Shown here piece by piece: positions 4,368-64,000 of a stretch of DNA of 64,000 nt; positions within the stretch are counted from its first letter, which is position 1; each line of letters opens with the position of its first letter. The stretch is taken from contig NZ_JAPEMC010000001.1 in the NCBI RefSeq assembly GCF_026343115.1, positions 3,987,501-4,051,500 of the forward strand. The letters run 5' to 3'. The position numbers were made by a program, and so were the translations under genes. The notes below the pieces were generated by a model. The model ran no database searches and was not told the origin of the DNA. It was given only the letters and a program-made list of their open reading frames with translations. The DNA comes from Streptomyces sp. NBC_00102. Lineage in GTDB: Bacteria > Actinomycetota > Actinomycetes > Streptomycetales > Streptomycetaceae.

Positions 4368-5508
4368 CGCGGTAACGGGGTACGACTTCGGGCGCAGCCA
4401 TCCGATGGACCCGGTACGCCTGGCCCTGACGATGGGGCTGGTGCGGGCTTTCGGCCTCGACGGGGCCGTGGACGTGCGGTCGGCCAAGGCCGCCGGGGAC
4501 TCCACGCTCCGCCTGGTGCACCGGCCGGACTACGTGGCGGCGGTACGGGCGGCCTCGGCCGACCCCCTCGCCGCCGACCAGGGCTACGGGCTCGGGACCG
4601 TCGACGACCCCGCTTTCGCGGGGATGCACGAGGTCTCCGCGCTCATCGCCGGGCTCTCCGTGGGCGCCGCCGAGGCCGTGTGGCGGGGCGCGACCGACCA
4701 CGCGGTGAACTTCACCGGCGGCCTGCACCACGCGATGCCCGGAGCCGCCGCCGGGTTCTGCGTCTACAACGACCCGGCGCTCGCCATCGCCCGGCTGCTG
4801 GAGCTGGGCGCCGAACGCGTCGCGTACGTGGACGTGGACGTGCACCACGGCGACGGGGTCCAGGCGGCGTTCTGGGACGACCCCCGGGTGCTGACCGTGT
4901 CGCTGCACGAGCACCCGCGCACCCTCTTCCCGCACACCGGGTTCCCGCAGGAGACCGGAGGGCCGGCCGGTGAGGGCGCGGCGGTCAACGTGGCGCTGCC
5001 GCCGGGGACCGGCGACGCGGGGTGGCTGCGGGCCTTCCACGCGGTGGTGCCGGAGCTGATCGCCGACTTCCGGCCGCAGGTGCTGGTGAGCCAGCACGGG
5101 ACGGACACCCACTTCGACGACCCGCTCGCCCATCTCGCGGTGACGCTGGACGCGCAGCGGGCCGTGATGGAGGCCTGCCACGAACTCGCGCACGCGCACG
5201 CCGAGGGCGGGCGGTGGGTGGCGCTGGGCGGCGGCGGGTACGCCGTCGTCGACGTGGTGCCGCGTTCCTGGACCCACCTGGTGGGGATCGCCGCGCACCG
5301 GCCGGTCGACCCGGAATCGGTGATCCCGGCGTCCTGGCGGGACGAGGTGCACGCCCGCACCGGGCAGCCGGGTCCCGAGCGGATGACGGACGGGCGCACC
5401 CCCCGCTGGCAGTCCTGGGACTCGGGTTACGACCCCGTGGACCGGCTGGACCAGGCGGTGCTGGCGACGCGCCGGTCCGCGTACCCGCTGCGTGGACTGC
5501 TCGCCTGA
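4336..5508 (+). CDS. acuC: Acetoin utilization protein AcuC (class I HDAC-fold deacetylase)
   Basis: A 390-aa Zn-dependent deacetylase of the arginase/deacetylase fold, probably acting on acetyl-lysine in proteins such as acetyl-CoA synthetase. Visible active-site elements are GGLHHAMPG (the His-His pair), YVDVDVHHGDGVQ (Asp and His Zn ligands), the VSLHEHPRTLFPHTG loop, LVSQHGTDTHFDDPLAHL (second Asp ligand) and GGGGYAV near the C terminus. The ATG at 4336 gives the N terminus MSGRAQLMWDDAV seen in streptomycete homologues. A GTG at 4309 would add nine residues. It overlaps the upstream MFS gene. Confidence 0.93.
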   Translation: MSGRAQLMWDDAVTGYDFGRSHPMDPVRLALTMGLVRAFGLDGAVDVRSAKAAGDSTLRLVHRPDYVAAVRAASADPLAADQGYGLGTVDDPAFAGMHEVSALIAGLSVGAAEAVWRGATDHAVNFTGGLHHAMPGAAAGFCVYNDPALAIARLLELGAERVAYVDVDVHHGDGVQAAFWDDPRVLTVSLHEHPRTLFPHTGFPQETGGPAGEGAAVNVALPPGTGDAGWLRAFHAVVPELIADFRPQVLVSQHGTDTHFDDPLAHLAVTLDAQRAVMEACHELAHAHAEGGRWVALGGGGYAVVDVVPRSWTHLVGIAAHRPVDPESVIPASWRDEVHARTGQPGPERMTDGRTPRWQSWDSGYDPVDRLDQAVLATRRSAYPLRGLLA

Positions 5509-5626
5509 AAGGGCCCGGTGCGCAAGGCGGCTGACGGGGCGTCGGGCGGGGACCCGCGCATGTGTGTTACGCCAACGGTGGTGCGGTGTACGGGTTGTGG
5601 CCCCCGGGGAAGGCCTGTAGGGAAGC

Positions 5627-6451
5627 ATGGCACGGGTGTTGAGCACCGGGGCGCTACGCGCCCACCTGCTGGCGGCCCGGCTGGCGGGGCCCGTCGCCAC
5701 CTCGCGCGAGAACAGTCTGCGCAGCTACCGGCTCTTCGCCGCCGGGGACCCCCGGGTGACCCTGGGGGTGCGCCCCGACGGGGTCTGGGGGGAGCGGGAG
5801 CTGCTGGGGCTGATGGCGGAGAGGTGCGGGGTCTCGGGCGATCCGGGGCGGGTGACGGGGGCCGACACGATCGACCCGGAACGCACCCTCGCGAGGCTGG
5901 ACGCGTTCGCCGGTCGGCTCGCGGAGGCGGCCGCGCGACGCGCCCCGGTCCTGTTCGGTACGGGGCACCCGGAGCGGCTGACCGGCTTCTACGCCGGGCT
6001 GGCAGACGCTCTGTCGGCGGCCGGCTGTACGGTCCTCACCCCCGGGCGGGGCCGTCGTGTCGACATAACGACTCGATTCGGCGTACGTCCGTACCGGCTC
6101 GATTACGTACGCGGGGTCGCGTTCGTGCGGGAGCCCGGCGCGCGCGGCGGAAGCGGGGGGCCGGGGGCGCACACCCACTCCCCGCTGCCCGTGCGGGCCG
6201 CGCTGGAGAGTGCCGCGGAGGACTCCCGCGGGCTTCCGGAGCTGGTGATCGGCGACCACGGATGGGCCTGCGGCGCAGGTCAGCTGGGCTTCGAGGCGAT
6301 GGGGCCGGCCGATGTGAACGACCCGGCGCTCTTCGTCGGCGAGGCGGAGGGCCGGGTGTCGGTGGCCGTACCCCTGGACGACGCCGTGGCGGCCGAGCAC
6401 TACCTGCCTCTGACGCGCTATGTGCTCAATCGGGCCTGTCTGTCACAGTAG
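5627..6451 (+). CDS. Conserved actinobacterial phosphatase-like protein
   Basis: A 274-aa protein of a conserved streptomycete family usually labelled phosphatase. Recognisable family segments are ATSRENSLRSYRLF (about 24-37), MAERCGVSGDPGR, DTIDPERTLARLDAF, LFGTGHPERL (about 107-116), the HTHSPLPVRAALE segment and ELVIGDHGWACGAGQLG. The C terminus has AVPLDDAVAAEHY. Conserved His and Asp residues in HTH and GDHGW could form a metal site, but no named catalytic motif is present and the reaction is unknown. The ATG at 5627 follows a GGGAAG ribosome binding site. Confidence 0.75.
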   Translation: MARVLSTGALRAHLLAARLAGPVATSRENSLRSYRLFAAGDPRVTLGVRPDGVWGERELLGLMAERCGVSGDPGRVTGADTIDPERTLARLDAFAGRLAEAAARRAPVLFGTGHPERLTGFYAGLADALSAAGCTVLTPGRGRRVDITTRFGVRPYRLDYVRGVAFVREPGARGGSGGPGAHTHSPLPVRAALESAAEDSRGLPELVIGDHGWACGAGQLGFEAMGPADVNDPALFVGEAEGRVSVAVPLDDAVAAEHYLPLTRYVLNRACLSQ

Positions 6452-6579
6452 GCGCCCGATCGCCTCACCTCTTCCCCACTCGCATCACGCGCCCCTAATC
6501 TGGGCAGTGAGCGCACAACGACGAAGAGTCACCGGAGGGGAAGCCGGTGCGCGTCGCCTGCGGAAGGTACAGGTGGGTC

Positions 6580-6792
6580 ATGGCTGCTGGGAGCGAGAGA
6601 CCTCTGAACGAGGTCAAGTTTCTGACCGTGGCGGAAGTCGCCTCGGTCATGAGAGTGTCGAAGATGACCGTGTACCGCTTGGTGCACAGCGGTCATCTGC
6701 CGGCGATCCGGGTGGGCAGGTCGTTCCGGGTGCCCGAGCAAGCGGTTCACGAGTACCTCCGCGAATCCTTTGTGGGGGTCGAGTCCGCCTGA
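6580..6792 (+). CDS. Excisionase-family (BldC-like) helix-turn-helix protein
   Basis: A 70-aa DNA-binding protein with the MerR/excisionase winged-helix core FLTVAEVASVMRVSKMTVYR (about 14-33), followed by LVHSGHLPAIRVGRSFRVP, the wing. This is the BldC/AlpA architecture. From memory the equivalent S. coelicolor gene is annotated bdtA. The ATG at 6580 is preferred over a GTG at 6547 because homology begins shortly after it. The gene stands alone between the phosphatase-like gene and the small ribosomal protein gene. It is probably a small developmental or housekeeping regulator; the target is unknown. Confidence 0.85.
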   Translation: MAAGSERPLNEVKFLTVAEVASVMRVSKMTVYRLVHSGHLPAIRVGRSFRVPEQAVHEYLRESFVGVESA

Positions 6793-6902
6793 CGTCTTTC
6801 CCTCGGATTACGTCCCTCACCAAGTGACGGGTAGGCTAGGCCGACGTAGGTCGTGTGGGCCCAGACGCCCCGCACCAGGATGAGAAGTGAGCGAGGGTAG
6901 TC

Positions 6903-7001
6903 GTGGGCTCTGTTATCAAGAAGCGGCGCAAGCGGATGGCCAAGAAGAAGCACCGCAAGCTGCTCAAGCGCACGCGCGTTCAGCGTCGCAACAAGAAGTA
7001 A
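6903..7001 (+). CDS. Small ribosomal protein bTHX-like (AURKAIP1/COX24 domain), 32 aa
   Basis: A very short, extremely basic 32-residue protein (GTG start): [20 protein letters not shown], then [11 protein letters not shown]. This is the AURKAIP1/COX24 domain found in a small extra 30S-subunit protein (bTHXc/bS22-like) encoded at this site in streptomycetes. A GAGGG ribosome binding site lies six bases upstream. A strong intrinsic terminator follows 19 bases after the stop, so it is transcribed as a short unit. It is too short for most gene finders but is clearly real. Confidence 0.92.
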
Positions 7002-7020
7002 GCGAACGCAGTTCGTGTCT

Positions 7021-7063
7021 CCGCAGCCCCTCCGTCGACATGGCGGAGGGGCTGCGGTATTTT
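7021..7063 (+). terminator. Intrinsic terminator after the bTHX gene
   Basis: A perfect 14-bp stem (CCGCAGCCCCTCCG / CGGAGGGGCTGCGG) with an eight-base loop is followed by TATTTTT. This is an unusually classical Rho-independent terminator for Streptomyces. Confidence 0.92.
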
Positions 7064-7252
7064 TCCGCCGCTGTTTTTTCAGCGGGTCCCCGACGGTGCC
7101 TTTCCGCCCCGGTTTCCGGCTCCGTCCGCGACGAGTTCGTCAAACCCCGGTCCGGGGAAGCCGCAGGGAAACATCCACCCGCTACGGTGACCGGCAGGGG
7201 ACGGCCCTTTTCGCGGGCGTCCCGCCTCGTGGACCGACGGAAGGCGCTGATC

Positions 7253-8365
7253 TTGGGGAAGGTCGTGCTCGTCACAGGAGCGGCCCGGCAGTTGGGAGGC
7301 CGCTTCGTGCGGCGCGTCCAGCGCGATCCCGGAGTGGACCGGGTGATCGCCGTCGACGCCACGGAGCCCGCGCACCGGCTGGGTGACGCGGTGTTCGTAC
7401 GCGCCGACATCCGGCAGCCCGCCATCGCACGGGTGCTCGCGGAACACTCCGTGGACACCGTGGTCCACCTCAACGTCTCCGGCAAGGCGCTCGGCGCGGC
7501 CGGCCGGACGGCGATCAAGGAAACCAACGTCATCGGCACCATGCAGCTCCTCGGTGCCTGCCAGAAGTCGCCCACCGTCCAGCGACTGGTGGTGAAGTCC
7601 ACCACCAGTGTCTACGGCGCCGCCCCGCGCGACCCGGCCGTCTTCACAGAGACGACCCCGCCGAAGTCCCTGCCGAGCGGCGGCTTCGCCAAGGACGCGG
7701 TCGAGGTCGAGGGGTACGTACGCGGCTTCGCCCGGCGCCGCCCGGACGTCGCGGTCACCGTCCTGCGCTTTGCCAACATCCTCGGCCCGATGCCGGACTC
7801 GCCGCTCGCGGACTACCTCGCGCTGCCCGTACTGCCGACCGTCCTCGGGTACGACCCCCGGCTCCAGTTCGTCCACGAGGACGACGTGATCGACGTCCTG
7901 GGCATCGCGGCGAGGGAACCCCGGCGCGGAACCCTCAACAGCGGCACCTTCAACATCGCCGGCGACGGGGTGCTGCTGCTCTCGCAGTGCGCGCGCCGCC
8001 TGGGCCGGCCCACGGTCCCGGTGCTGCTGCCCGCCGTCACCTGGGTCGGTTCGGCACTCCGCGCGGTCGGCATGACGGACTTCTCCCCGGAGCAGATCCG
8101 GCTGCTCACCCACGGCAGGGTGGTCTCCACCCTCCAGATGTACGAGACGCTGGGCTTCCGCCCGAGATTCACCACGGCGGAGACCTTCGCGGAGTACGGC
8201 CGCAGCCGCGGTCCCGGGCTGCTGCCGCCCGAGACGGTGGGCCGCGCGGTCGACCGCCTCGCCGGGCTGCCGCTCGTCGGCCCGGCGCGCCGGTCCCGGC
8301 CGGCCGTCCCGGCGGCGGAGCGTGGCGCAGGGCAGACGACGCAGACGACGCACGGCGCCAGGTAG
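7253..8365 (+). CDS. NAD-dependent epimerase/dehydratase family protein (extended SDR)
   Basis: A 370-aa extended short-chain dehydrogenase. The Rossmann entry is GKVVLVTGAARQLGG at the N terminus, followed by VIAVDATEPAHRLGDAVFVRADIR (Asp binding NAD ribose) and DTVVHLNVSG. The substrate region contains STTSVYGAAP and the later FVHEDDVIDVLGIA motif. The usual YxxxK position reads FAKDAVEVEG, so the canonical catalytic Tyr is not obvious. The TTG start at 7253 is chosen because homologues begin MGKVVLVTG; GGAAGG lies upstream. It is followed 15 bases later by an acyltransferase gene, a conserved actinobacterial pair of uncertain function, possibly in lipid or envelope metabolism. Confidence 0.82.
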   Translation: MGKVVLVTGAARQLGGRFVRRVQRDPGVDRVIAVDATEPAHRLGDAVFVRADIRQPAIARVLAEHSVDTVVHLNVSGKALGAAGRTAIKETNVIGTMQLLGACQKSPTVQRLVVKSTTSVYGAAPRDPAVFTETTPPKSLPSGGFAKDAVEVEGYVRGFARRRPDVAVTVLRFANILGPMPDSPLADYLALPVLPTVLGYDPRLQFVHEDDVIDVLGIAAREPRRGTLNSGTFNIAGDGVLLLSQCARRLGRPTVPVLLPAVTWVGSALRAVGMTDFSPEQIRLLTHGRVVSTLQMYETLGFRPRFTTAETFAEYGRSRGPGLLPPETVGRAVDRLAGLPLVGPARRSRPAVPAAERGAGQTTQTTHGAR

Positions 8366-8380
8366 AGGAGCGCATCGACG

Positions 8381-9505
8381 ATGGCGGACGCCAAGGTCAT
8401 TCCGTTCGACGACGACCGGTCCCGGTCCGGGGGCGGGTCACGCTCCGCGCGGCGCCGTACCGGCTCCGGCGCGCACTCCGGGCGGGCCGAGGGCGCCGCG
8501 GCGCCCGTGAGCGCCCTGCCGGGCGCCCAGGTCCCCGGACAGGCGCGCGCGGGCACCGAGCCGCCCCAGGCGGCGCACGGACCCCAGGAGGGGCCCGGGG
8601 CACGCGAGGAGGCGGCGACGCCCGGGACGCAGGAGGCGGGGGAGACCCGCGGGAGCACGGCACGCGCCGACTGGGACCGCCGGATCGCGGGCGGACTCGC
8701 CTTCCTGCGGCGGCGCGTGACCGGCGATTACGAAGTGGACGAGTTCGGCTACGACGCGGAACTGACCGACCAGGTCCTGATGTCGCTGTTGCGGCCCCTC
8801 GCGGACAAGTACTTCCGCGTCGAGGTGAAGGGGATCGAGAACATCCCCGAGGACGGCGGCGCGCTCGTCGTCGCCAACCACTCCGGGACCCTGCCCCTCG
8901 ACGGGCTGATGCTCCAGGTCGCCGTGCACGACCACCACCCCGCCGAGCGCCACCTGCGGCTGCTCGCCGCCGACCTCGTCTTCCAGCTGCCGGTCGTCAA
9001 CGAACTGGCCCGCAAGGCCGGTCACACCCTGGCCTGCGCGGAGGACGCGCAGCGGCTGCTGGAACTCGGCGAGATCGTCGGGGTGATGCCGGAGGGCTTC
9101 AAGGGACTCGGCAAACCCTTCGGCGACCGGTACAAGCTCCAGCGGTTCGGCCGGGGCGGGTTCGTCTCCACCGCGCTGCGCGCCGGGGTACCGATCGTGC
9201 CCTGCTCGATCGTGGGCGCGGAGGAGGTCTACCCCATGCTCGGCAACGCCAGGACCGTCGCACGGCTGTTGGGCTTCCCGTACTTTCCGGTCACTCCGAC
9301 CTTCCCCTGGCTCGGCCCGCTCGGCCTGGTGCCGCTGCCGACGAAGTGGACCATCCAGTTCGGCGAGCCCATCCCGACCGACGGCTACCCGCCCGAGGCG
9401 GCCGAGGACCCGATGCTGATGTTCAACCTCACCGACCAGGTGCGCGAGCAGATCCAGCACACGCTCTACACGCTGCTCGTCCAGCGCCGCTCGGTGTTCT
9501 TCTGA
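8381..9505 (+). CDS. Lysophospholipid acyltransferase family protein (PlsC-like)
   Basis: A 374-aa protein with an about 110-residue Gly/Ala/Pro-rich disordered N terminus, followed by a PlsC-type acyltransferase domain. Domain motifs are ALVVANHSGTLPLDGLML (the His and downstream Asp of the catalytic block, about residues 163-180), GVMPEGFKGLGKPFG (glycerophosphate-binding block III) and GVPIVPCSIVGAEE (block IV). It probably transfers a fatty acyl group to a lysophospholipid-type acceptor at the cytoplasmic membrane. It follows the epimerase gene by 15 bases with an ATG start, consistent with one operon. Confidence 0.85.
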   Translation: MADAKVIPFDDDRSRSGGGSRSARRRTGSGAHSGRAEGAAAPVSALPGAQVPGQARAGTEPPQAAHGPQEGPGAREEAATPGTQEAGETRGSTARADWDRRIAGGLAFLRRRVTGDYEVDEFGYDAELTDQVLMSLLRPLADKYFRVEVKGIENIPEDGGALVVANHSGTLPLDGLMLQVAVHDHHPAERHLRLLAADLVFQLPVVNELARKAGHTLACAEDAQRLLELGEIVGVMPEGFKGLGKPFGDRYKLQRFGRGGFVSTALRAGVPIVPCSIVGAEEVYPMLGNARTVARLLGFPYFPVTPTFPWLGPLGLVPLPTKWTIQFGEPIPTDGYPPEAAEDPMLMFNLTDQVREQIQHTLYTLLVQRRSVFF

Positions 9506-9525
9506 CGGCGTTCCTCAGCGCGCTT

Positions 9526-9570
9526 CCAGGGGGCGGGCGTCCGGTGTCGATCCGGATGCCCGCCCCCTGG
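9526..9570. terminator. Bidirectional hairpin between convergent genes
   Basis: Nineteen-base arms (9526-9544 and 9552-9570) pair with one G-T wobble around a seven-base loop. The hairpin sits between the acyltransferase gene (+) and rsbN (-), which converge here, so it probably terminates both. Confidence 0.8.
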
Positions 9571-9589
9571 TGTCGTACGGACGGAAGGG

Positions 9590-10822
9590 CTACTCGTCCG
9601 CGTCCTCCGCGCTGATGCCCAGGCCGGGGAGGAGGCCGGGCAGCAGCGGAGGCAGGGTGACGTCCGGCGTGCCGGAGCCGTCGGATCCGCCCGGCTCCTC
9701 CGACTCGTCCGAGCCCGACGGCGAGCTGCCCCCGTCGGTCGGCAGGCCGTCCAGCAGGCCGTCCGTGCCGCCGAGGAGACCGTCCCGCTCCTCCGGCGAC
9801 GCCGAACCCGAGGGCGAGGCGGAGCCGCCCTCGGCCGAGGAGGCCGCGGAGGAGGGGGCCGACGACGGGGCCGCGGACGGAGAGGTCCGCGAGGAGCCAC
9901 TGCCCCCCTGCGGGACCCCGGACCGCTGCGAGGCGCCCCCGCCGCTCCTGTCCGGAGTGCGCGGCAGCAGCGATTCCAGCGGCGCGACCTCTTCGTCTAT
10001 GGCCGCCAGCACCGAGCTGACCTTGTCCCCGACGTCGGTGAGCTGGACCGGCAGCCGGTCGCGCAGGCTGCTCCAACTGTCGCGGTGCGAACGGGAGAAC
10101 GAGTCCAGGGTCTGGATGGGACCGAGGGTGCCCTCGCGTTCGTACGCGGCGTGGAGCAGCCGGTGCCCCTCGGAGGCGTCGTGCGACATCCCGCTGAGGG
10201 CGCGCCTGATCTCACCGAGCGACTCGTGGTCCAGGTGGCCGGAACGGCCGCGTTCCATCAGGCGGCGCGCCTCGCTGAGCCGGGTCGAGGCCTGGTCGAG
10301 GAATGCCTCGCCGCGGTCGGTGTCGCTGTCGGCCATGGAGCGCTGGATGTCCTCCATGCCCCGCTTGAGGCCGTACAGCGAGTCACCGGGGAGGGCGTCG
10401 GAGCTGGCCGCGGCGACGCCGCCGAACGCCCCCGCCGCGACACCCACGGTCAGCCCGCCTGCGGTGAGCCCCTTCGCCCAGCGGGAACGCGGACGGAGCT
10501 TGCGGAGCGGGGAGGCCCGGTGGGCTCCCCTGGGGCGTTGCTCGGGCACCGTGGGGCCCGTGGACGCCCCGGCCTCGGCGGCCTCGGCGAACATCGCTTC
10601 CATGGCGGCGACGAGCTGCGCTCGCTGCACCACTTTGACTTCGGGATCGAACTGCGGCGACGGCAGTTCACCGAGGCCGTTCGCCAGGGCCAACAGTGCT
10701 CCGTGGTCGGCCTGTTCGGCCGGTTCCTCGGGCTGTACGGCCGCCGCACCCTGGGGGGACTGTTCCTCCAGGGCCTGGGCGAAGGCGTTCGCCCGCCGGT
10801 GTGCCGAAACGTTTGCGATCAC
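9590..10822 (-). CDS. rsbN: RsbN, anti-sigma factor of BldN (DUF5667 protein)
   Basis: A 410-aa single-pass membrane protein. The N-terminal cytoplasmic part (about 1-125, starting with IANVSAHRRANAFAQALEEQ) is the sigma-binding region. One membrane segment follows (GLTAGGLTVGVAAGAFGGVAAA, about 134-155), then a DUF5667 extracytoplasmic helical domain (LPGDSLYGLKRGMEDIQRS). The C terminus is a Ser/Gly/Pro/Glu-rich tail of roughly 110 residues. The GTG at 10822 was chosen because AGGAGGTG lies just upstream. It lies directly downstream of bldN, as known for the BldN-RsbN pair that controls aerial hyphae. A BldN-type promoter is visible 130 bases upstream, implying feedback. Confidence 0.88.
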   Translation of the reverse strand: MIANVSAHRRANAFAQALEEQSPQGAAAVQPEEPAEQADHGALLALANGLGELPSPQFDPEVKVVQRAQLVAAMEAMFAEAAEAGASTGPTVPEQRPRGAHRASPLRKLRPRSRWAKGLTAGGLTVGVAAGAFGGVAAASSDALPGDSLYGLKRGMEDIQRSMADSDTDRGEAFLDQASTRLSEARRLMERGRSGHLDHESLGEIRRALSGMSHDASEGHRLLHAAYEREGTLGPIQTLDSFSRSHRDSWSSLRDRLPVQLTDVGDKVSSVLAAIDEEVAPLESLLPRTPDRSGGGASQRSGVPQGGSGSSRTSPSAAPSSAPSSAASSAEGGSASPSGSASPEERDGLLGGTDGLLDGLPTDGGSSPSGSDESEEPGGSDGSGTPDVTLPPLLPGLLPGLGISAEDADE

Positions 10823-10953
10823 TGGCGGCACCTCCTCTCGTCATGACGGTCGACTCCCCTGAGGGTCCGGAAGGTTGTACACCCGGGGTCGATGCCACTC
10901 GATGGGGTGAGTGACGCCGGTCGAGGTGTAGCTACAGGGGGCCTGCATCCGGC

Positions 10954-10982
10954 ACAACGAGCGGCGCGGCACTTGGGTTACG
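10954..10982 (-). promoter_or_regulatory. BldN-type promoter upstream of rsbN
   Basis: Read on the minus strand, CGTAAC (10982-10977) is followed after 17 bases by CGTTGT (10959-10954). These match the -35 and -10 elements described for the ECF sigma factor BldN in Streptomyces. The site lies about 130 bases upstream of the rsbN start and downstream of bldN, so rsbN would be induced by the sigma factor it inhibits. Confidence 0.72.
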
Positions 10983-11030
10983 GACGAAAGATGATCGGAC
11001 CAGTGCGTCATGAACGCGACATACCGGAGG

Positions 11031-11048
11031 GCCGGGGCACGCCCCGGC
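11031..11048. terminator. GC hairpin between bldN and rsbN
   Basis: GCCGGGGC and GCCCCGGC form a perfect eight-base stem with a two-base spacer just after the bldN stop. There is no T tract, so it may be an attenuator or weak terminator partly separating bldN from rsbN. Confidence 0.45.
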
Positions 11049-11062
11049 GGCGGCGGGCCGCG

Positions 11063-11914
11063 TCAGCGGGCGTCGTCCGGCAGCAGGCGGGCGAGGGTGC
11101 GGACGGCCCGGTACTGGAGGGTCTTGATCGCGCCCTCGTTCTTTCCCATCACGCGGGCGGTCTCCGCGACCGAGAGCCCTTGCAGGAACCTGAGCGTCAC
11201 GCACTCCTGCTGCTGCGGGTTGAGGCGTCGCACGGCCTGGAGCAGCGCGGCGTTGGAGAGGGATTCCAGCACGGAGTCCTCGGGGGAGCGCTCGACCTCG
11301 TTGGCGTCGAGCATCTCGCCGGTGGTGACCTCCAGCCGGAAGCGGCTGGACTTGAAGTGGTCGGCGACGAGGTTGCGCGCGATGGTGACGAGCCAGGCGC
11401 CGAAGTCGCGGCCCTGCCAGGTGAACGTGGAGATGCGGCGCAGCGCGCGGAGGAAGGTCTCGCTGGTGAGGTCCTCCGCCGTGGCCTTCCCGCCCACGCG
11501 GTAGTAGATGTACCGGTACACGGTGTCGCTGTACTGGTCGTAGAGGCGGCCGAACGCGTCGGCCTCGCCGGCCTGCGCGCGCTCGACGAGGTCCATCATG
11601 CGGGCGCTGTCGCTGTCGGCGGTGGGACGGCGGACGGTCGACGTGGCCGCGGCCGCGGCCGAGGACCCCGAGGACGCTGGGGACCCTGAGGACGCCGGGG
11701 ACGCCGAGGACGCGGTCGAGGCGGCGCGGGTGCCGCGTCTTCCGACCACCGCACCGCGTTCCGCCAGGGCATAGCAAGGGCCGGCAGGTGCGGCTGCAGG
11801 GGTGGCGAGCGCGGGTACGGCGTACGCGGTGGGGACGAAGCCGCGCAAGCGGTCGAGGACCGTTGCACGCAGCGTAGCCAGGCCCGAGGCGTCAACCCCG
11901 ACGTGTGGGTACAC
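11063..11914 (-). CDS. bldN: ECF RNA polymerase sigma factor BldN
   Basis: A 283-aa ECF sigma factor for aerial mycelium formation, with a long N-terminal pro-extension (about residues 1-95) as in streptomycete BldN/AdsA. The extension starts YPHVGVDASGLATLRATVLD and turns into an Ala/Ser-rich stretch. The sigma-2 domain follows (FGRLYDQYSDTVYRYIYYR, then TAEDLTSETFLRAL). The sigma-4 domain is near the C terminus (LNPQQQECVTLRFLQGLSVA, then the HTH ETARVMGKNEGAIKTLQYRA). The GTG at 11914 is the conserved start, with GGGAG upstream. The anti-sigma gene rsbN lies downstream. The long 5' region before it (700 bases, no gene) is consistent with a heavily regulated promoter. Confidence 0.93.
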   Translation of the reverse strand: MYPHVGVDASGLATLRATVLDRLRGFVPTAYAVPALATPAAAPAGPCYALAERGAVVGRRGTRAASTASSASPASSGSPASSGSSAAAAATSTVRRPTADSDSARMMDLVERAQAGEADAFGRLYDQYSDTVYRYIYYRVGGKATAEDLTSETFLRALRRISTFTWQGRDFGAWLVTIARNLVADHFKSSRFRLEVTTGEMLDANEVERSPEDSVLESLSNAALLQAVRRLNPQQQECVTLRFLQGLSVAETARVMGKNEGAIKTLQYRAVRTLARLLPDDAR

Positions 11915-58358: not shown

Positions 58359-59126
58359 TCAGGCGGCGTCCGGACCGCCGAACTCGCGCACCGCGTCCGC
58401 GACCACCGTCTCCAGGTGTCCGTGGTGCGCGCCCCGCCAGTACACCCGCTCGCAGACCGTGCACTGCGCGAACACGTCGTACGCCGCCTGCGTGCCGTGC
58501 TCCAGCCGGTCGGCCACCGCCTCCTTGTCGGCCTCCCGCAGCGGCCCGTTGCACGCGGTGCAGCGCGACCACGGAACCAGCACCGGCGCGAAACGCCCCA
58601 GCACGTCACGGAGCTGCTCCTCGGGCCGGTCGCTGTAGACGTAGGCCCCCGCCCAGAGCTCCCGCCGCCGCAGCAGCCCGCGGTCCCGTGACAGCATCAC
58701 CCGCCGCTCGCGCGCGGAGAGCGCCGCCAGCGCGGGGTCCCCGATGTCCTCGCTCTCGTACGCCGCGTCGACCCCGAGCAGCCGCAACCGCCGCGCCAGC
58801 GTGCCCAGATGCACGTCGAGCAGGAACCGCAACGGCGCTCCCGGCACCCGCTGCGGACGCTCCACCGCGCGTACGGCCAGGTGCTCCCCGGTACGCGGGA
58901 CGTGCGACACCGCCACCTCCGCCCCGTCCACCACCAGCGCCCCCGCCTCGGTGAGCGGCACCCCGAGCGACTCCACGACGTGCCCGAGCGTCGACACCCC
59001 GTCCGTCGCCAGCGCGGTCACCCCCTGCCGCCGCTCGTGCGCGACGAACAGCCGCAACTCGGGGGCCACTTCGACGGTGATCCGCTGCTTGGTCGCGGGC
59101 GGCCTGGACACGGGAGGCTTGGTCAC
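58359..59126 (-). CDS. Mut7-C RNase domain protein with N-terminal ubiquitin-like domain
   Basis: A 255-aa protein. The N-terminal about 85 residues form a MoaD/ubiquitin-like fold (VEVAPELRLFVAHERR and GALVVDGAEVAVSHVPRTGE). The C-terminal Mut7-C domain (about 95-250) has FLLDVHLGTLARRLRLLGVD, VMLSRDRGLLRRRE and a CTACNGPL/CTVCERVYWRG zinc-like pair. The domain is predicted to be a PIN-type RNase. Starts with ATG at 59126, downstream of the regulator on the same strand. Possible RNA-processing or tRNA-related role. Confidence 0.87.
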   Translation of the reverse strand: MTKPPVSRPPATKQRITVEVAPELRLFVAHERRQGVTALATDGVSTLGHVVESLGVPLTEAGALVVDGAEVAVSHVPRTGEHLAVRAVERPQRVPGAPLRFLLDVHLGTLARRLRLLGVDAAYESEDIGDPALAALSARERRVMLSRDRGLLRRRELWAGAYVYSDRPEEQLRDVLGRFAPVLVPWSRCTACNGPLREADKEAVADRLEHGTQAAYDVFAQCTVCERVYWRGAHHGHLETVVADAVREFGGPDAA

Positions 59127-59205: not shown

Positions 59206-60570
59206 TCAGACCAGCACGCCACTGCGCCGGGCGAGACTGCGCAGCTCCGTACCGGTGGGGCCGGACACCAGGAGCGACGAGACGAGCGACTTCACGGCGG
59301 GCCGGGCGTGGGTCTCCTCCGGAGCGTGGTGCTCGGCGGACAGGAGCGTCCTGACGCAGTCCTGGCGGCGCCCCAGCCGTTCGAGGGCCGTGGCGACGTC
59401 GGTGAGGCAGCGGGACCGGCGTTCGACGCTGGGCAACGCCTTCAGAGAGACGGTCCTGGCCGCGGCGAGAGCGGCCAACGGGTCGCCCGCGTGATTCTCG
59501 GCGGAGATGCGGTGCAGCCGCACGGTGAGTGGGCTGAAGCCGCCCCCGTGGTCACGCAGTAGCGTCGCCCCGCCGAGTTCCTCGGCGATGGCCGCGGCTT
59601 CATCGGTGAGTTCCCGCATGCCGTCGCGGTCGCCACGCCGGGCGACCGTGTAGGCGGCGGACTGGATGAGTAGTCCGCGTTCCGCCGTGCCGGCGCGGCC
59701 GACGGCCCGCAGATCGGGATGGTCCGCTGCGGTGAGGGCGATCGACAGCGCCTCCGTGTGCCACCCCGCCTTGCGTGCGAGGACAGCGAGCTGGCGGGCG
59801 GACTCCGCGACGGCGAGGGCGTCGCCCCCGGCCGTGGCGAGCCCGTGGGCGCGGTCGGCAGCCATCCAGCCGAGCTGCTGCTCGTCCATCTTGATCAGCA
59901 TGCGGGTGGCCAGAAGGTAGCTCCTGGCGAGCAGGCCGCAGCTGTCCGGAGCGCCGGTGGAGGCTTCCGCGTGACCGGCGCGGATCAGGCGGGGCAGCCG
60001 TACGGTGAGGCCCGAGTACCGGCAGGCGTCGAAGTCCGCGAGAGCACGGGTGAAGTCGGAGGAGAGTCCCCCTGCCGGCAGGGCGGGGCCGAAGCCGCCC
60101 AGGCCGAGCATCGCGTCCCTGATCCCGGCGACCAGCAGATCACCGAGGACTCCCTCGTCCGCGTGGGCCGACCGGTTCCCTGAACCGGGGGATACCGCAG
60201 TCGCCGCTGCCGCGGCCGCCATGCCCGCCAGTAACTTCCTCCGCCGCACCGGATCTTCACCGTCCTCGCGCTCTGAGCCGATCAGGCTGACCACCCTAGG
60301 GCCGGGCAGCCGGGGGAAGGTCGTGGTTGCGGCGATCCGCTGGCCGTGTCGTGTATCGGAGCGTGGCGCCGGCGGAACCAGGCCGAATGCCTGATGCGGA
60401 AGGTCCAGGGCATCCGCGAAGGTTCGTAGCACGTCCACGTCTGTAAGGGGTGAGATGCCGCGCTCGTAGCGGGAGACTTGGGCGGCGGAGAACCTGGTCA
60501 GTTCTCCCAGTTCGGCGAGAGTCAGTCCCTTGGCCTGTCGAGTCTCCCGGACGAGATCCCCGGGCTTCAC
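59206..60570 (-). CDS. XRE-family HTH regulator with C-terminal helical repeats
   Basis: A 454-aa regulator. HTH at the N terminus: AKGLTLAELGELTRFSAAQV then SRYERGISPLTDVDVLRTFA (about 13-52). A long Ala-rich region follows, including a helix AGMAAAAAATAVSPGSG that looks like a twin-arginine-type stretch but is internal. The C-terminal 330 residues are TPR-like helices (AADRAHGLATAGGDALAVAE, LADAADHPDLRAVG). Similar to streptomycete regulators that control adjacent secondary-metabolism genes. GTG at 60570 (KPGDLVRETRQ) is chosen; longer in-frame starts are possible. Divergent from the mur-like operon, so its likely regulator. Confidence 0.82.
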   Translation of the reverse strand: MKPGDLVRETRQAKGLTLAELGELTRFSAAQVSRYERGISPLTDVDVLRTFADALDLPHQAFGLVPPAPRSDTRHGQRIAATTTFPRLPGPRVVSLIGSEREDGEDPVRRRKLLAGMAAAAAATAVSPGSGNRSAHADEGVLGDLLVAGIRDAMLGLGGFGPALPAGGLSSDFTRALADFDACRYSGLTVRLPRLIRAGHAEASTGAPDSCGLLARSYLLATRMLIKMDEQQLGWMAADRAHGLATAGGDALAVAESARQLAVLARKAGWHTEALSIALTAADHPDLRAVGRAGTAERGLLIQSAAYTVARRGDRDGMRELTDEAAAIAEELGGATLLRDHGGGFSPLTVRLHRISAENHAGDPLAALAAARTVSLKALPSVERRSRCLTDVATALERLGRRQDCVRTLLSAEHHAPEETHARPAVKSLVSSLLVSGPTGTELRSLARRSGVLV

Positions 60571-60811
60571 ATCGGCCCCGTAGGTCTCGTGCGCCCTGTT
60601 AATCGCATCTATGCCCCGTCTCTGAAGGATGGTCGAGATGGCCCCGCCCCGACCGTAGCCCCGGAAACGCCTGCTTGGGCAGGGGCTTTGCATGAGACGC
60701 AAACGGGATTGCGTGCCAGAGCGGTACCTCTCCCTGTCCGGGCATGCAGCGGCGATCGTCGAAGTCCGTCGGCCGACCAGGCCGTCGGCTCTTCTCCTCG
60801 CGGAGGTTCCG

Positions 60812-61537
60812 ATGCAACCCGTGCCTTCCACTCCGTCTCCGACGGCAGCCGGCGATGTTCGCCTCACCCCCGGCTACTACTTCCGGTCCGACGATCTCGG
60901 CTCCCGCGTCACCAGCCTGCTGGAGTGCTCCAGCGTCTTCGGTATCAAGGCCGCCATGGTCGAACTCTTCTCCAGTGCCGCGGCCGGGCTTCGTGACGAG
61001 CACTGCGGTGTCGTCGAAGAAGGGGCCCTGCTGCAGGGTGACGTCATTGTGCAGGCAGGTGCCCGCGTGGAGGCGGGCGCACAGGTCGTCGGCCCGGCCC
61101 TGATCTGCACGGGCACTGTTGTCGCGGCTGGAGCGCTGATTCGCGACAACAGCGTCATCGGACCCGGGTGCAGGATCGGCTTCGGCGCGGAGGTTACCCG
61201 GAGCCTGCTGACGGGCTACGTCTTCATGAAGCACCCCTGCTTCGTCGGAGACTCGGTGATCGGACGCCGAGTCAACCTCGGCTCGTTCTGCTCCACGACC
61301 GGACTGCGGTGTGATCGTGGACCGATTGCGGAACCGGCTGTCGAGGAGATTTCGATCAACCTTGGCGGGCAGCGGATTCTCACCGGGCAGACGAAGTTCG
61401 GCGCAGTGATCGGCGACGAGGTCTCCTTGCCGGCCGGAACCGTTCTGTCGCCGGGCACGCTGATCGGGCCGGGAACGGTGGTCTACCCGCGCGATCACAT
61501 CGGGGGCTTCCTGCCTGCCGGTACCCGGGTCCGGTGA
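60812..61537 (+). CDS. Left-handed beta-helix (hexapeptide) protein, GlmU-C-terminal-like
   Basis: A 241-aa hexapeptide-repeat protein: VIVQAGARVEAGAQVVGPAL, VVAAGALIRDNSVIGPGCRI and VSLPAGTVLSPGTLIGPGTV are successive turns. It lacks the nucleotidyltransferase half of GlmU, matching the short LbH_G1P_TT/GlmU C-terminal group. It could be an acetyltransferase on an amino-sugar phosphate or nucleotide, or a structural relative. The ATG at 60812 follows GGAGG, and the stop overlaps the next start (GTGA). First gene of the MurA/MurB-like operon. Confidence 0.82.
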   Translation: MQPVPSTPSPTAAGDVRLTPGYYFRSDDLGSRVTSLLECSSVFGIKAAMVELFSSAAAGLRDEHCGVVEEGALLQGDVIVQAGARVEAGAQVVGPALICTGTVVAAGALIRDNSVIGPGCRIGFGAEVTRSLLTGYVFMKHPCFVGDSVIGRRVNLGSFCSTTGLRCDRGPIAEPAVEEISINLGGQRILTGQTKFGAVIGDEVSLPAGTVLSPGTLIGPGTVVYPRDHIGGFLPAGTRVR

Positions 61538-62844
61538 CAGCCATGAACGCAGTCAGCGCACCCGGCACCTTGGTCCAAGTGGTCGGCGGGCGGCCGCTGG
61601 TCGGACGCGTTACCGTGCAGGGCAGCAAGAACATCGCCCTGCACCTGTATGCCGCCGCGCTCTTGACCGACGCCCCTCTCGCGTTGACCGGTGCTCCGGC
61701 GATTCTCGACACCGAGGTGTGCGCTGGGATCCTCCGGCACACGGGCGCGCATGTCGACCTCCAAGCGGGCCGCTTTATGGTGAGTCAGGGAGGCAACATG
61801 CGCCCGATCATCCATCCTGAACTCGGCCGCAAGGTCCGAACGACCGCCGTTTTGGCTGGAGCGGTACTCGCCCGGACCGGACAGGTAGCCTTCCCCTACC
61901 CCGGAGGCGACGCCTTCTGCCCTCGCTTCATCGACCGACACCTTGCGGCGATGCAGGCCGCCGGCGCCGATCTGACACTGAGCGGAAGTGGCATCAGTGC
62001 CCGATGCGAAAGCCGAGGAGTGCGGCCGTTCACCGTGGATGTGAACACGCCGTTCGGACCCAGCCTTGGGGCGACAGTGACCTCGATGCTGCTCGCCGCT
62101 CGTGCGCCGGGAACGAGCCTGATCACCCATCCGTCCATCGAGCCGGAGGTCGCCGAGACTGCCCGGTTTCTCCAGGCGCGAGGGATTCACATCGCCTTAG
62201 ACCAGGACGGCTTGCACGTGACGGGTAGCGACAGCGTGGGCGGAGGCACTTTTGCCGTGGCAGGCGACCGCATCGAGGCAGCGACCATGATGATGGCCGG
62301 GGCCGCGACCGGGGGGAGCGTCCATCTCGACAACATCAGCGTCGGCGATCTCCCGACAGGGCTGACGGACGCCCTGTCCCGGGCCGGACTCGTCCTGACC
62401 GACGACGAAGCCTCCGGCGGAGTTCGCTCCTCTCCGGTTGGACTGTTGCGTGGGGTGGAAACGGCGACGGGGCCGCACCCTGGGCTGCCCACCGACAGCG
62501 CGCCCCAGCTTGGCGCCATGCTCACGCAGGCCGAAGGGGCCTCGCTGATCTCCGAGCGCGTCTACCCGCAGCGTGACACCCATGTGAGGGGACTTCGCGC
62601 CTTCGGCGCAGACATTTCCTCCTCCGGCTCCTTGATCCGGATTCGAGGACCCGTGCGACTGCGCGGTGCGGACGCGGAGGCCGCCGACATTCGCGCGGTG
62701 ACCTCTCTGCTGATTGCCGCCCTTGCAGCAGACGGGACCTCTACGATCCGGGGGATCTACCACCTCCGGCGCGGCTACGGCAACCTCCTGGACAACCTCG
62801 CCACGCTGGGAGCCGTCATCGCAACGACCCCCGGAGGCCCTTGA
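61534..62844 (+). CDS. MurA-like UDP-GlcNAc enolpyruvyl transferase paralogue (Cys-to-Asp, TTA codon)
   Basis: A 436-aa EPSP-synthase-fold protein of the MurA type. VQGSKNIALHLYAAALL has the Lys32-Asn33 pair, VRTTAVLAGAVLA (Arg102) is conserved, and PTDSAPQLGAML holds the base-type Asp. The active-site loop reads YPGGDAFCPRFIDRH: Asp126 stands where E. coli MurA has the fosfomycin-target Cys115. Mycobacterial MurA also has Asp there. In-frame Leu codon TTA at 62197, rare in Streptomyces, makes translation depend on the bldA tRNA. GTG start in the upstream stop; ATG at 61543 possible. A second, probably specialised enzyme rather than the housekeeping MurA. Confidence 0.87.
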   Translation: MTAMNAVSAPGTLVQVVGGRPLVGRVTVQGSKNIALHLYAAALLTDAPLALTGAPAILDTEVCAGILRHTGAHVDLQAGRFMVSQGGNMRPIIHPELGRKVRTTAVLAGAVLARTGQVAFPYPGGDAFCPRFIDRHLAAMQAAGADLTLSGSGISARCESRGVRPFTVDVNTPFGPSLGATVTSMLLAARAPGTSLITHPSIEPEVAETARFLQARGIHIALDQDGLHVTGSDSVGGGTFAVAGDRIEAATMMMAGAATGGSVHLDNISVGDLPTGLTDALSRAGLVLTDDEASGGVRSSPVGLLRGVETATGPHPGLPTDSAPQLGAMLTQAEGASLISERVYPQRDTHVRGLRAFGADISSSGSLIRIRGPVRLRGADAEAADIRAVTSLLIAALAADGTSTIRGIYHLRRGYGNLLDNLATLGAVIATTPGGP

Positions 62845-63884
62845 TGTCTGTTGTCCCGTTCACTGCCGAAGACGCCGCTCGACTCCAGGACTCTCTCGAG
62901 CAGGTCGTTGCGGACGGCGCTACCCCTGGTGGTGTGCTCGCCTTCGGCACCCTGGACGCCGTCCCCAGGTTCCTGTCCGCCGGCCGAATCGCATTCGAGT
63001 GCGGCGACGCGGAGCCTGACCGGCACACTGCGTACGACATCGCCTCGCTGACAAAGGTGGTAGCCACCTGGCCTCTGATCGGTCAGGCTCTCCAGGATGG
63101 CCTTCTTGACCTGGACGCACCGATCCGCGACTTCCTGCCTCCGATGCGCAGCGAGACGCCCAGCGCTGAGCCCTCCGTCCGCCAGCTTCTCGCCCACACT
63201 TCGGGGCTGCGGGCTTCCACTCGCCTCGATCACTACCGCGGCGCAGAACTACCGTTGCATGAACTTCTGTGCCGGGAGCCCCTCGAAGACACGTCAGGAC
63301 AGCACCGGTACATCAACCGCGGCTACATTCTTCTCGGCCTGGCTCTCACTCACCTTCGCCACCGCTCGCTCGACCAGCTCACCGACAGCCTGTGGCACGC
63401 CCTCGGCATGAACGACACCGTATTCGGGCCCGTTACCCGTACTCGTCAGGTCGCGCCAACGGAGCAGCGCATCCCCGGCGCCCCGCGCATCTGGGGCGCG
63501 GCCCATGACGACAACGCAGTTCTTCTCGGTGGCGTCGCTGGCCATGCTGGTGTCTTCTCCACCCCTGCCGACCTTGCCGTCTACGCGCAGCGGCTGCTGA
63601 CCGCCCACGTAGGGGGTGACGAGACGGCGCTCGGCTCGTGGCTGCAGGACAGCCTCGTTCCCCAGACTCCGATCGAGCCGGGCCTGGATCGAGGCCTGTC
63701 CTGGATCCTCGCCGCCGGGGGACGCGTGGCTTACCACCACGGCTTCACCGGTACCAGCCTCTACCTCGCCCCCGACACCGGCCGCTACCTCGTCCTCTGC
63801 ACCAACGCCGTTTATCACGGCAACGCCCGCACGCGCATTGCACCGCTCCGCGCTCTCGCGATCAAGACTGTCTCTGCCACCTGA
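62844..63884 (+). CDS. Serine beta-lactamase/PBP-fold hydrolase (class C type)
   Basis: A 346-aa protein of the beta-lactamase superfamily (class C/PBP4 and esterase EstB type). SxxK: YDIASLTKVVATWPLIGQA (Ser at about 68). YxN: RYINRGYILLGLAL. The third motif is HGFTGTSLYL (KTG counterpart HGF). The stretch QLLAHTSGLRA is typical of the family. No signal peptide, so it acts in the cytoplasm, unlike ordinary beta-lactamases. ATG at 62844 overlaps the MurA-like stop (TGATG) with GGAGG upstream. It may be a peptidase, esterase or acyltransferase of the pathway. Confidence 0.87.
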   Translation: MSVVPFTAEDAARLQDSLEQVVADGATPGGVLAFGTLDAVPRFLSAGRIAFECGDAEPDRHTAYDIASLTKVVATWPLIGQALQDGLLDLDAPIRDFLPPMRSETPSAEPSVRQLLAHTSGLRASTRLDHYRGAELPLHELLCREPLEDTSGQHRYINRGYILLGLALTHLRHRSLDQLTDSLWHALGMNDTVFGPVTRTRQVAPTEQRIPGAPRIWGAAHDDNAVLLGGVAGHAGVFSTPADLAVYAQRLLTAHVGGDETALGSWLQDSLVPQTPIEPGLDRGLSWILAAGGRVAYHHGFTGTSLYLAPDTGRYLVLCTNAVYHGNARTRIAPLRALAIKTVSAT

Positions 63885-63899
63885 CCAAAGGAGGCCCCC

Positions 63900-64000
63900 A
63901 TGGGCGAGCTCCTTGCCGACCACACCACGTTGCGTCTCGGTGGACCTGCCGATCGGTTCCTTACCCATACCGACCCCGCTGCCTGGCCCGATCTCGCCCG
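63900..64000 (+). CDS. MurB-like UDP-N-acetylmuramate dehydrogenase, 5' part (cut by window end)
   Basis: Only 33 codons are present, GELLADHTTLRLGGPADRFL, which is the start of the MurB FAD-binding domain (HTTLRLGGPAD). An AAAGGAGG ribosome site and a short 15-base gap from the beta-lactamase-like gene place it in the same operon. MurB reduces the enolpyruvyl-UDP-GlcNAc made by MurA, so finding it behind a MurA paralogue is strong evidence for a dedicated pathway. Confidence 0.85.
   Translation, partial: MGELLADHTTLRLGGPADRFLTHTDPAAWPDLA

What the first reader, a model, noticed from the sequence alone, without database searches (positions are those of the whole stretch)
60812..64000. A second MurA-MurB pathway in a bldA-type operon with GlmU-like and beta-lactamase-like genes
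Four overlapping or closely coupled genes (GlmU-C-like helix protein, MurA paralogue, cytoplasmic serine beta-lactamase fold, MurB) sit next to a divergent XRE regulator. Together they resemble a self-contained route to a UDP-MurNAc-like molecule outside the housekeeping peptidoglycan pathway. MurA paralogues of this kind make precursors of peptidyl-nucleoside antibiotics (e.g. the NikO/PolA type) or modified cell-wall sugars. No product is known to me for this exact gene set, so this is my leading candidate for an undescribed system.
Basis: partly seen in the sequence, partly recalled or inferred. Interest (0 to 1): 0.85.

Follow-up and report, generated by a model that had tools for sequence, protein, structure and literature searches.

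The report
Mobile second MurA pathway in Streptomyces
A small mobile set of genes in some Streptomyces encodes a second, diverged copy of the first steps toward the bacterial cell-wall sugar muramic acid, paired with an unusual acyltransferase and a hydrolase; its product is unknown and no description of the set was found.

Summary
Window 60812-64000 carries a packed operon: a GlmU-C-like beta-helix (LbH) acyltransferase, a MurA paralogue (MurA2), a serine hydrolase of beta-lactamase fold, and MurB2, which runs to 64940 outside the window. A divergent XRE regulator precedes it. The genome has another MurA and MurB of housekeeping type. The set recurs as a mobile cassette. LbH, MurA2 and hydrolase are intact and co-vary in 36 cassettes; MurB2 is intact in 20 of these, broken in 5 and absent in 11. 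Active-site residues are conserved. MurA2 has Asp where the genome's three other MurA-type proteins have the fosfomycin-reactive Cys. NikO is a much weaker relative than MurA. The hydrolase is nearest to the PBP4B (YfeW) model; yfeW sits in E. coli's murQ-murP operon. My reading is an accessory, regulator-linked pathway to a muramic-acid-type amino sugar, with the hydrolase acting on the lactyl carboxyl. Gene set and conservation are shown; substrates, product and role are inferred. Other accessory MurA cassettes with different partners exist.

The parts
59206..60570 (-). Divergent XRE-family regulator (HTH_31 N-terminus, long C-terminal region without a Pfam match); the GTG start at 60570 is my choice, not proven; its frame holds one TTA codon
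   Evidence: a match to one of the regulator queries lies within 2.6 kb upstream of LbH in 33 of 36 cassettes, three of them weak
60571..60811 (.). Intergenic control region between XRE and the operon
   Evidence: no operator motif was searched for
60812..61537 (+). LbH acyltransferase related to the acetyltransferase domain of archaeal-type GlmU (ST0452); no nucleotidyltransferase domain
   Evidence: (2ggo/5z09, E about 4e-26)
61534..62844 (+). MurA2, MurA-type enolpyruvyl transferase with Asp at the position of E. coli Cys115
62197..62199 (+). Single TTA codon in murA2 (not conserved in the family)
62844..63884 (+). Serine hydrolase, beta-lactamase fold (SLTK, YIN and HHG motifs), nearest NCBIfam model PBP4B; no signal peptide by eye
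63900..64000 (+). Start of MurB2; the gene continues to 64940 outside the window (L007:3400-4440)

Best explanation
The operon is a mobile, XRE-linked accessory pathway that makes a muramic-acid-type amino sugar in parallel with the housekeeping route. LbH N-acylates a hexosamine 1-phosphate. Host enzymes supply the UDP form. MurA2 adds enolpyruvyl to the sugar 3-OH. MurB2, or the host MurB where MurB2 is missing, reduces it to the lactyl ether. The serine hydrolase then acts on the lactyl carboxyl as an amidase, esterase or acyl transferase, by analogy with relatives in muramic-acid recycling. The product is most likely a specialised metabolite or a modified wall sugar, not bulk peptidoglycan. 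Shown: genes, recurrence, correlated divergence, purifying selection, conserved active-site residues, plasmid carriage. Inferred: every substrate, the order of steps, control by the XRE protein, and the product.
For: MurA2 keeps the catalytic MurA residues tabulated; D305 is replaced in 5 of 56 rows, two of those rows being one locus (roles recalled). MurB2 keeps Arg, Ser and Glu of the E. coli active site in all 12 aligned rows, E. coli included (roles recalled). LbH keeps the equivalents of GlmU H363, N377 and K392 in the five members aligned (roles recalled), and its best solved relative is ST0452. In 36 of 58 loci the first three genes are intact, and protein distances of the four genes correlate at 0.86-0.93, permutation p 0.001. 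Median dN/dS is 0.26-0.42 per gene. The hydrolase's best NCBIfam model is PBP4B. E. coli PBP4B (yfeW) lies in murQ-murP-yfeW and aligns at 31% over 229 aa, E 6e-22 in a two-sequence comparison. B. subtilis AmiE, a PF00144 protein in the murQRP cluster, is a MurNAc-L-Ala amidase (passages, PMC5061867, PMC10653849). A second cassette in the same genome also pairs a MurA-like gene with a hydrolase of this subfamily.
Against: The set has no uridylyltransferase, ligase, export or assembly gene. MurB2 is absent or broken in 16 of 36. The PBP4B score is far below that model's cut-off (59.5 against 385 bits), PF00144 is large, and the fold search does not separate functions. In LbH the GlmU Y366 position is Phe in five of five members, and N386 is replaced in four of five. 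The positions of E. coli P121 and L124 are changed in most MurA2 rows, so the nucleotide may not be UDP. One plasmid carries a close hydrolase without a detectable MurA2. No metabolite is known.
Confidence: 0.5

Rival explanations
1. Drug-insensitive bypass: the XRE protein senses cell-wall stress and switches on a MurA/MurB pair that a MurA inhibitor such as fosfomycin cannot block, so that UDP-MurNAc continues to be made for the ordinary wall.
For: Asp at the Cys115 position in all 56 accessory MurA2 rows (some are the same locus twice), against Cys in the genome's housekeeping-type MurA and its two other MurA-type paralogues; natural Cys-to-Asp MurAs in Mycobacteria and Chlamydia are fosfomycin resistant (PMC6801904, passage); mobile, sporadic, regulator-linked.
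Against: Fosfomycin resistance would need MurA alone; LbH and the hydrolase are kept more faithfully than MurB2 among the cassettes scored (where intactness of the first three genes was the entry condition); relatives carry MurA2 with an epimerase instead of LbH and hydrolase.
Confidence: 0.25
2. NikO/PolA-like nucleoside chemistry: MurA2 transfers enolpyruvyl to a nucleotide sugar-ring hydroxyl and starts a nucleoside antibiotic.
For: A related plasmid gene set couples a MurA2-family gene to genes annotated as dTMP kinase and NUDIX; the second cassette type has two DCD-family genes and a metallophosphoesterase.
Against: NikO is a distant match (100.3 bits against 218.8 for MurA); MurB2 and LbH have no obvious role in such a route; no nucleoside or peptide genes were seen alongside.
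Confidence: 0.1
3. Conflict or defence module whose small product harms phage or rivals.
For: Sporadic, on plasmids, with broken copies; the epimerase-type kin lies once in a prophage-like region; XRE linkage.
Against: No PADLOC model matches any of the five cassette proteins; a pattern scan of IMG/VR viral contigs confirmed no relative; no effector-like domain in the Pfam scans.
Confidence: 0.12

Closest known systems
Housekeeping MurA and MurB
   Same: Fold family, tabulated active-site residues, likely enolpyruvyl transfer and reduction
   Different: 33% and 39% identity to the genome's own housekeeping-type copies; Asp for Cys; a separate, supported clade; accessory, mobile, with LbH and hydrolase
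NikO (nikkomycin), accessory enolpyruvyl transferase
   Same: A MurA-type enzyme outside peptidoglycan synthesis
   Different: NikO uses UMP and has Cys130 (PMC6801904, passage); MurA2 is far closer to MurA
E. coli YfeW (PBP4B) and B. subtilis AmiE in muramic-acid recycling operons
   Same: PF00144 hydrolase beside muramic-acid genes
   Different: Here beside biosynthetic MurA/MurB; no recycling genes were called in the operon; the AmiE sequence itself was not compared
ST0452 / GlmU acetyltransferase domain
   Same: LbH fold, His/Asn/Lys of the active site
   Different: No nucleotidyltransferase domain; the Tyr366 position is Phe in the five members aligned, the Asn386 position is changed in four of them

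Membership tests
MurA | EPSP-synthase fold family with MurA residues K22, R91, R120, D305, R331, R371, R397 | tested here: met
   met in the window protein; D305 replaced in 5 of 56 rows (L027 and L052, one locus; L084, L086, L093); K22 not covered in two truncated rows
MurA | Acts on UDP-GlcNAc and PEP | not testable with these tools
   needs enzyme assay; P121 and L124 positions differ
MurA | NCBIfam equivalog cut-off TIGR01072 | tested here: not met
   317.5 bits against 392.7; the broader subfamily model NF006873 is met, 322.5 against 297; hence 'MurA-type paralogue', not MurA
MurB | FAD_binding_4 + MurB_C, with catalytic Arg, Ser, Glu | tested here: met
NikO/PolA type | Closest kin is NikO rather than MurA | tested here: not met
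GlmU acetyltransferase | LbH fold with His363/Asn377/Lys392 equivalents | tested here: met
   five members aligned with E. coli GlmU
GlmU acetyltransferase | Tyr366 and Asn386 equivalents | tested here: not met
   Phe in five of five; Asn386 position replaced in four of five
GlmU acetyltransferase | Bifunctional with uridylyltransferase domain | tested here: not met
   241 aa, no such domain
PBP4B (YfeW) | NCBIfam equivalog cut-off NF002968 | tested here: not met
   59.5 bits against 385
MurNAc-L-Ala amidase (AmiE-like) | PF00144 with SxxK and YxN | tested here: met
   (19 of 19 rows)
MurNAc-L-Ala amidase (AmiE-like) | Sequence kinship to AmiE itself | not tested
   AmiE sequence not obtained; YfeW used instead
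Known anti-phage system | Match to a PADLOC model | tested here: not met
   no match for the five cassette proteins at E 1e-5

The most novel reading that the evidence does not exclude
Streptomyces and kin carry a whole class of minimal, mobile pathways built round an accessory enolpyruvyl transferase. The partner sets seen are LbH + hydrolase (+MurB), NAD-epimerase, dTMP kinase + NUDIX, and metallophosphoesterase + two DCD proteins + GT4 + hydrolase. Each would make a different enolpyruvyl- or lactyl-ether sugar or nucleotide as a signal or antimetabolite, a chemical class not yet recognised.
Probability: 0.27. Interest if true: 0.8.

Novelty: new variant of a known kind. Interest (0 to 1): 0.57.

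Why it matters
If right, muramic-acid chemistry, usually seen as the private business of the cell wall, has been packaged into mobile cassettes and reused. This would open a source of unknown metabolites, and give a directly testable case of a naturally Asp-type, predicted fosfomycin-insensitive MurA coexisting with a Cys-type housekeeping enzyme.

Tried and rejected
Rejected: a bigger biosynthetic cluster to the right; in 44 loci clustered by protein similarity no family other than the cassette genes and the main XRE regulator is in more than 7 loci (a crude gene caller). Rejected: NikO type. Rejected: bldA dependence as a family trait: TTA in 6 of 128 intact cassette genes, against 24 of 375 high-GC3 called frames in the same loci, cassette genes not removed. 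Led nowhere: the single-sequence scan of genome contigs and the viral scan confirmed no relative; the phage tblastn gave 39 records, all under 60% identity and 28-34% in the 30 rows listed; the fold search of the hydrolase gave many tied S12/class C matches; the paper search on ST0452 gave nothing usable (listing); PMC12723261 and PMC5270213 had nothing on point (passages); PMC13041923 was seen as abstract and outline only. Not held: the NikO structure paper. 'No description found' rests on paper searches (listings) only; most subscription journals are missing. On checking, the odds of the novel case were lowered from 0.30 to 0.27, because the XRE neighbour of the second cassette matched in none of the six relatives' loci.
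Full report
WHAT IS THERE. The window is G000:C1:3987501-4051500 of an 8.6-Mb genome. It is a Streptomyces: a same-genus genome (G123) has the 12,982-base contig named S. longisporoflavus in the other collection. The operon reads LbH (60812-61537), MurA2 (61534-62844), serine hydrolase (62844-63884) and MurB2 (63900-64940, mostly past the window end), with short overlaps or gaps, and a divergent XRE gene to the left. GC3 is 0.73-0.79, below the mean 0.87 (sd 0.06) of 48 genes called crudely in the window, which suggests import. Downstream come hemL and cytochrome-biogenesis-type genes (gene names recalled from the sequences).

SITE. The left neighbour (58359-59126) and hemL are 7.3 kb apart here. 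They are 1.6 kb apart in G006 and 2.9 kb in G005, neither of which has the LbH gene. This fits an insertion. It is not clean: in G004, also without LbH, the two genes are 8.8 kb apart, and in the other relatives searched they are on different contigs, far apart, or one is missing.

NOT THE HOUSEKEEPING COPY. The genome has six EPSP-family genes: two that score highest and look AroA-like (not tested further), a housekeeping-type MurA (L011; called so from its sequence and an HU-like neighbour, recalled), an XRE-MurA fusion (L009), one in a second cassette (L010), and MurA2. There are two MurB_C matches. MurA2 is 33% identical to the housekeeping-type MurA, and MurB2 39% to the other MurB. In a tree of 55 rows MurA2 and its kin form a clade of 51 with support 99/91; the other paralogues have long branches, so their own places are unsure.

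ACTIVE SITES. At 24 positions of E. coli MurA tabulated for 56 accessory rows, some of them the same locus twice, K22, R91, R120, R331, R371 and R397 hold wherever covered; two truncated rows lack K22/N23, and N23 is Gly in L087. D305 is Gly in L027 and L052 (one locus) and Asn in L084, L086 and L093. Cys115 is Asp in all 56, while the three other MurA-type proteins of this genome have Cys. Natural Cys-to-Asp MurAs of Mycobacteria and Chlamydia are fosfomycin resistant (PMC6801904, passage). The P121 and L124 positions are changed in most rows, so the nucleotide pocket may differ (inference). Eleven MurB2 rows and E. coli MurB share Arg161, Ser239 and Glu335 (window MurB2 numbering) in 12 of 12. 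The hydrolase keeps S68-x-x-K71, Y156-x-N158 and HHG in 19 of 19 rows. LbH best matches the archaeal ST0452 protein by sequence and by fold (model pLDDT 76). It keeps the equivalents of GlmU H363, N377 and K392 in five members aligned, but has Phe for Y366 in all five, and N386 is replaced in four. The roles of these residues are recalled.

DISTRIBUTION. LbH is in 7 of 199 same-genus genomes sampled, this one included. Of 396 genomes sampled across the phylum, 12 matched the LbH profile: this genome and 11 much weaker ones of one distant family. A scan with the MurA2 alignment gave 43 loci in Streptomyces, Kitasatospora, Streptosporangium, Microtetraspora, Embleya, Kutzneria, Nocardiopsis and others. 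On PLSDB plasmids there were 21 records, 18 of them in Streptomyces or Embleya; the other three are 35-36% matches annotated murA. I fetched 12 of these 18 plasmid regions and scored 11 gene by gene, with 43 + 4 other loci, 58 in all. In 36 of the 58, LbH, MurA2 and hydrolase are intact, and there MurB2 is intact in 20, broken in 5 and absent in 11. The other 22 are: eight with MurA2 but no LbH, hydrolase or MurB2 (an NAD-epimerase next to it was seen in L051, L057, L083 and L085); three plasmid loci with other partners; one with a dTMP kinase gene; two cut by contig ends; six with broken core genes; and two that the script labels broken but that may be mere partial matches (hydrolase in L063, LbH in L092). 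Some loci are near-copies. MurB2 status needs many changes on the MurA2 tree (12 for intact, at least 9 forced by starred branches), and five loci hold broken MurB2, so repeated loss is the simplest reading; direction was not tested. The epimerase group is nested inside LbH-type rows.

A UNIT. Protein distances of the four genes correlate at 0.86-0.93 with permutation p 0.001 (36 loci, or 20 where MurB2 is involved). Shared ancestry alone contributes to this. Median dN/dS is 0.26 (LbH), 0.30 (MurA2), 0.27 (hydrolase) and 0.42 (MurB2, 9 pairs only). A match to one of the regulator queries (four families hit) lies within 2.6 kb upstream of LbH in 33 of 36, on either strand; those of L042, L043 and L045 are weak, under 65 bits. 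Beyond the cassette and the main XRE family, no protein cluster is in more than 7 of 44 loci.

THE HYDROLASE. It has no obvious signal peptide (by eye). Only three hydrolases in this genome match at 1e-10: itself, the one in the second cassette, and one with a secretion-like N-terminus. Its best NCBIfam model is PBP4B, far below that model's cut-off (59.5 against 385 bits). E. coli PBP4B (yfeW) follows murQ and murP and aligns at 31% over 229 aa (a two-sequence comparison). B. subtilis AmiE, a PF00144 protein in the murQRP cluster, is a MurNAc-L-Ala amidase (PMC5061867 and PMC10653849, passages). A beta-lactamase domain is also fused to a glucosaminidase in Rhodothermus (PMC6987092, passages). 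This points to the lactyl carboxyl of muramic acid, but the fold is common and does not settle it.

SECOND CASSETTE. In the same genome (L010) a MurA-like gene with Cys is followed by a metallophosphoesterase, two DCD proteins, a GT4 glycosyltransferase and a hydrolase 36% identical to the window's. In six loci of five relatives, all six genes matched in five loci (some only in part in L116 and L120); the sixth, L119, showed only the MurA-like gene. The XRE gene beside the own copy matched in none of the six, although a helix-turn-helix gene is annotated near the plasmid copy. The MurA-like gene is in 9 of 100 genomes sampled, this one included. Pairing an accessory MurA-like gene with this hydrolase subfamily therefore recurs; an XRE link for this second type is not established.

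JUDGEMENT. Its chemistry up to an enolpyruvyl or lactyl amino sugar is likely. The end product is open. The bypass rival deserves a test because of Asp115, but it does not explain LbH, the hydrolase or the missing MurB2.

Noticed in passing
L010 (G000:C1:3673501-3693500), 4888-10725: Second cassette: MurA-like, metallophosphoesterase, two DCD-family proteins, GT4 and a related serine hydrolase; found in other genomes and on a plasmid.
   Followed up: partly
L009:9481-11010 (G000:C1:6022523-6023776): A MurA-type protein whose open frame begins with an XRE-like helix-turn-helix (by eye).
   Followed up: no
L057 (Kitasatospora humi), 9039-11248: NAD-epimerase + MurA2 pair in a prophage-like region: six of eight neighbours tested match PHROGs, among them tail, endolysin and antirepressor families.
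   Followed up: partly
L087:7983-10434 (S. anulatus plasmid): MurA2-family gene followed by genes annotated dTMP kinase and NUDIX.
   Followed up: no
L084, L086, L093 (plasmids): MurA2-family gene with D305 replaced by Asn, next to three hypothetical proteins (no Pfam hit for those of L086), and a GH15 gene in L084 and L093.
   Followed up: no
G003:C17 97800-115400: The second cassette type lies about 10 kb from hemL in G003, so the hemL region may be a hot spot for such cassettes.
   Followed up: no
L121 (Streptomyces sp. NBC_01304 plasmid), 4995-6032: A hydrolase 81% identical to the window's; no MurA2 was found in that record at 1e-40, and none of the other cassette genes is annotated alongside.
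   Followed up: no
L082, L095, L089: Plasmid cassettes have a gene annotated sugar nucleotide-binding protein beside the XRE gene, and PIG-L deacetylase genes nearby; L082 and L095 also have peptide deformylase.
   Followed up: no
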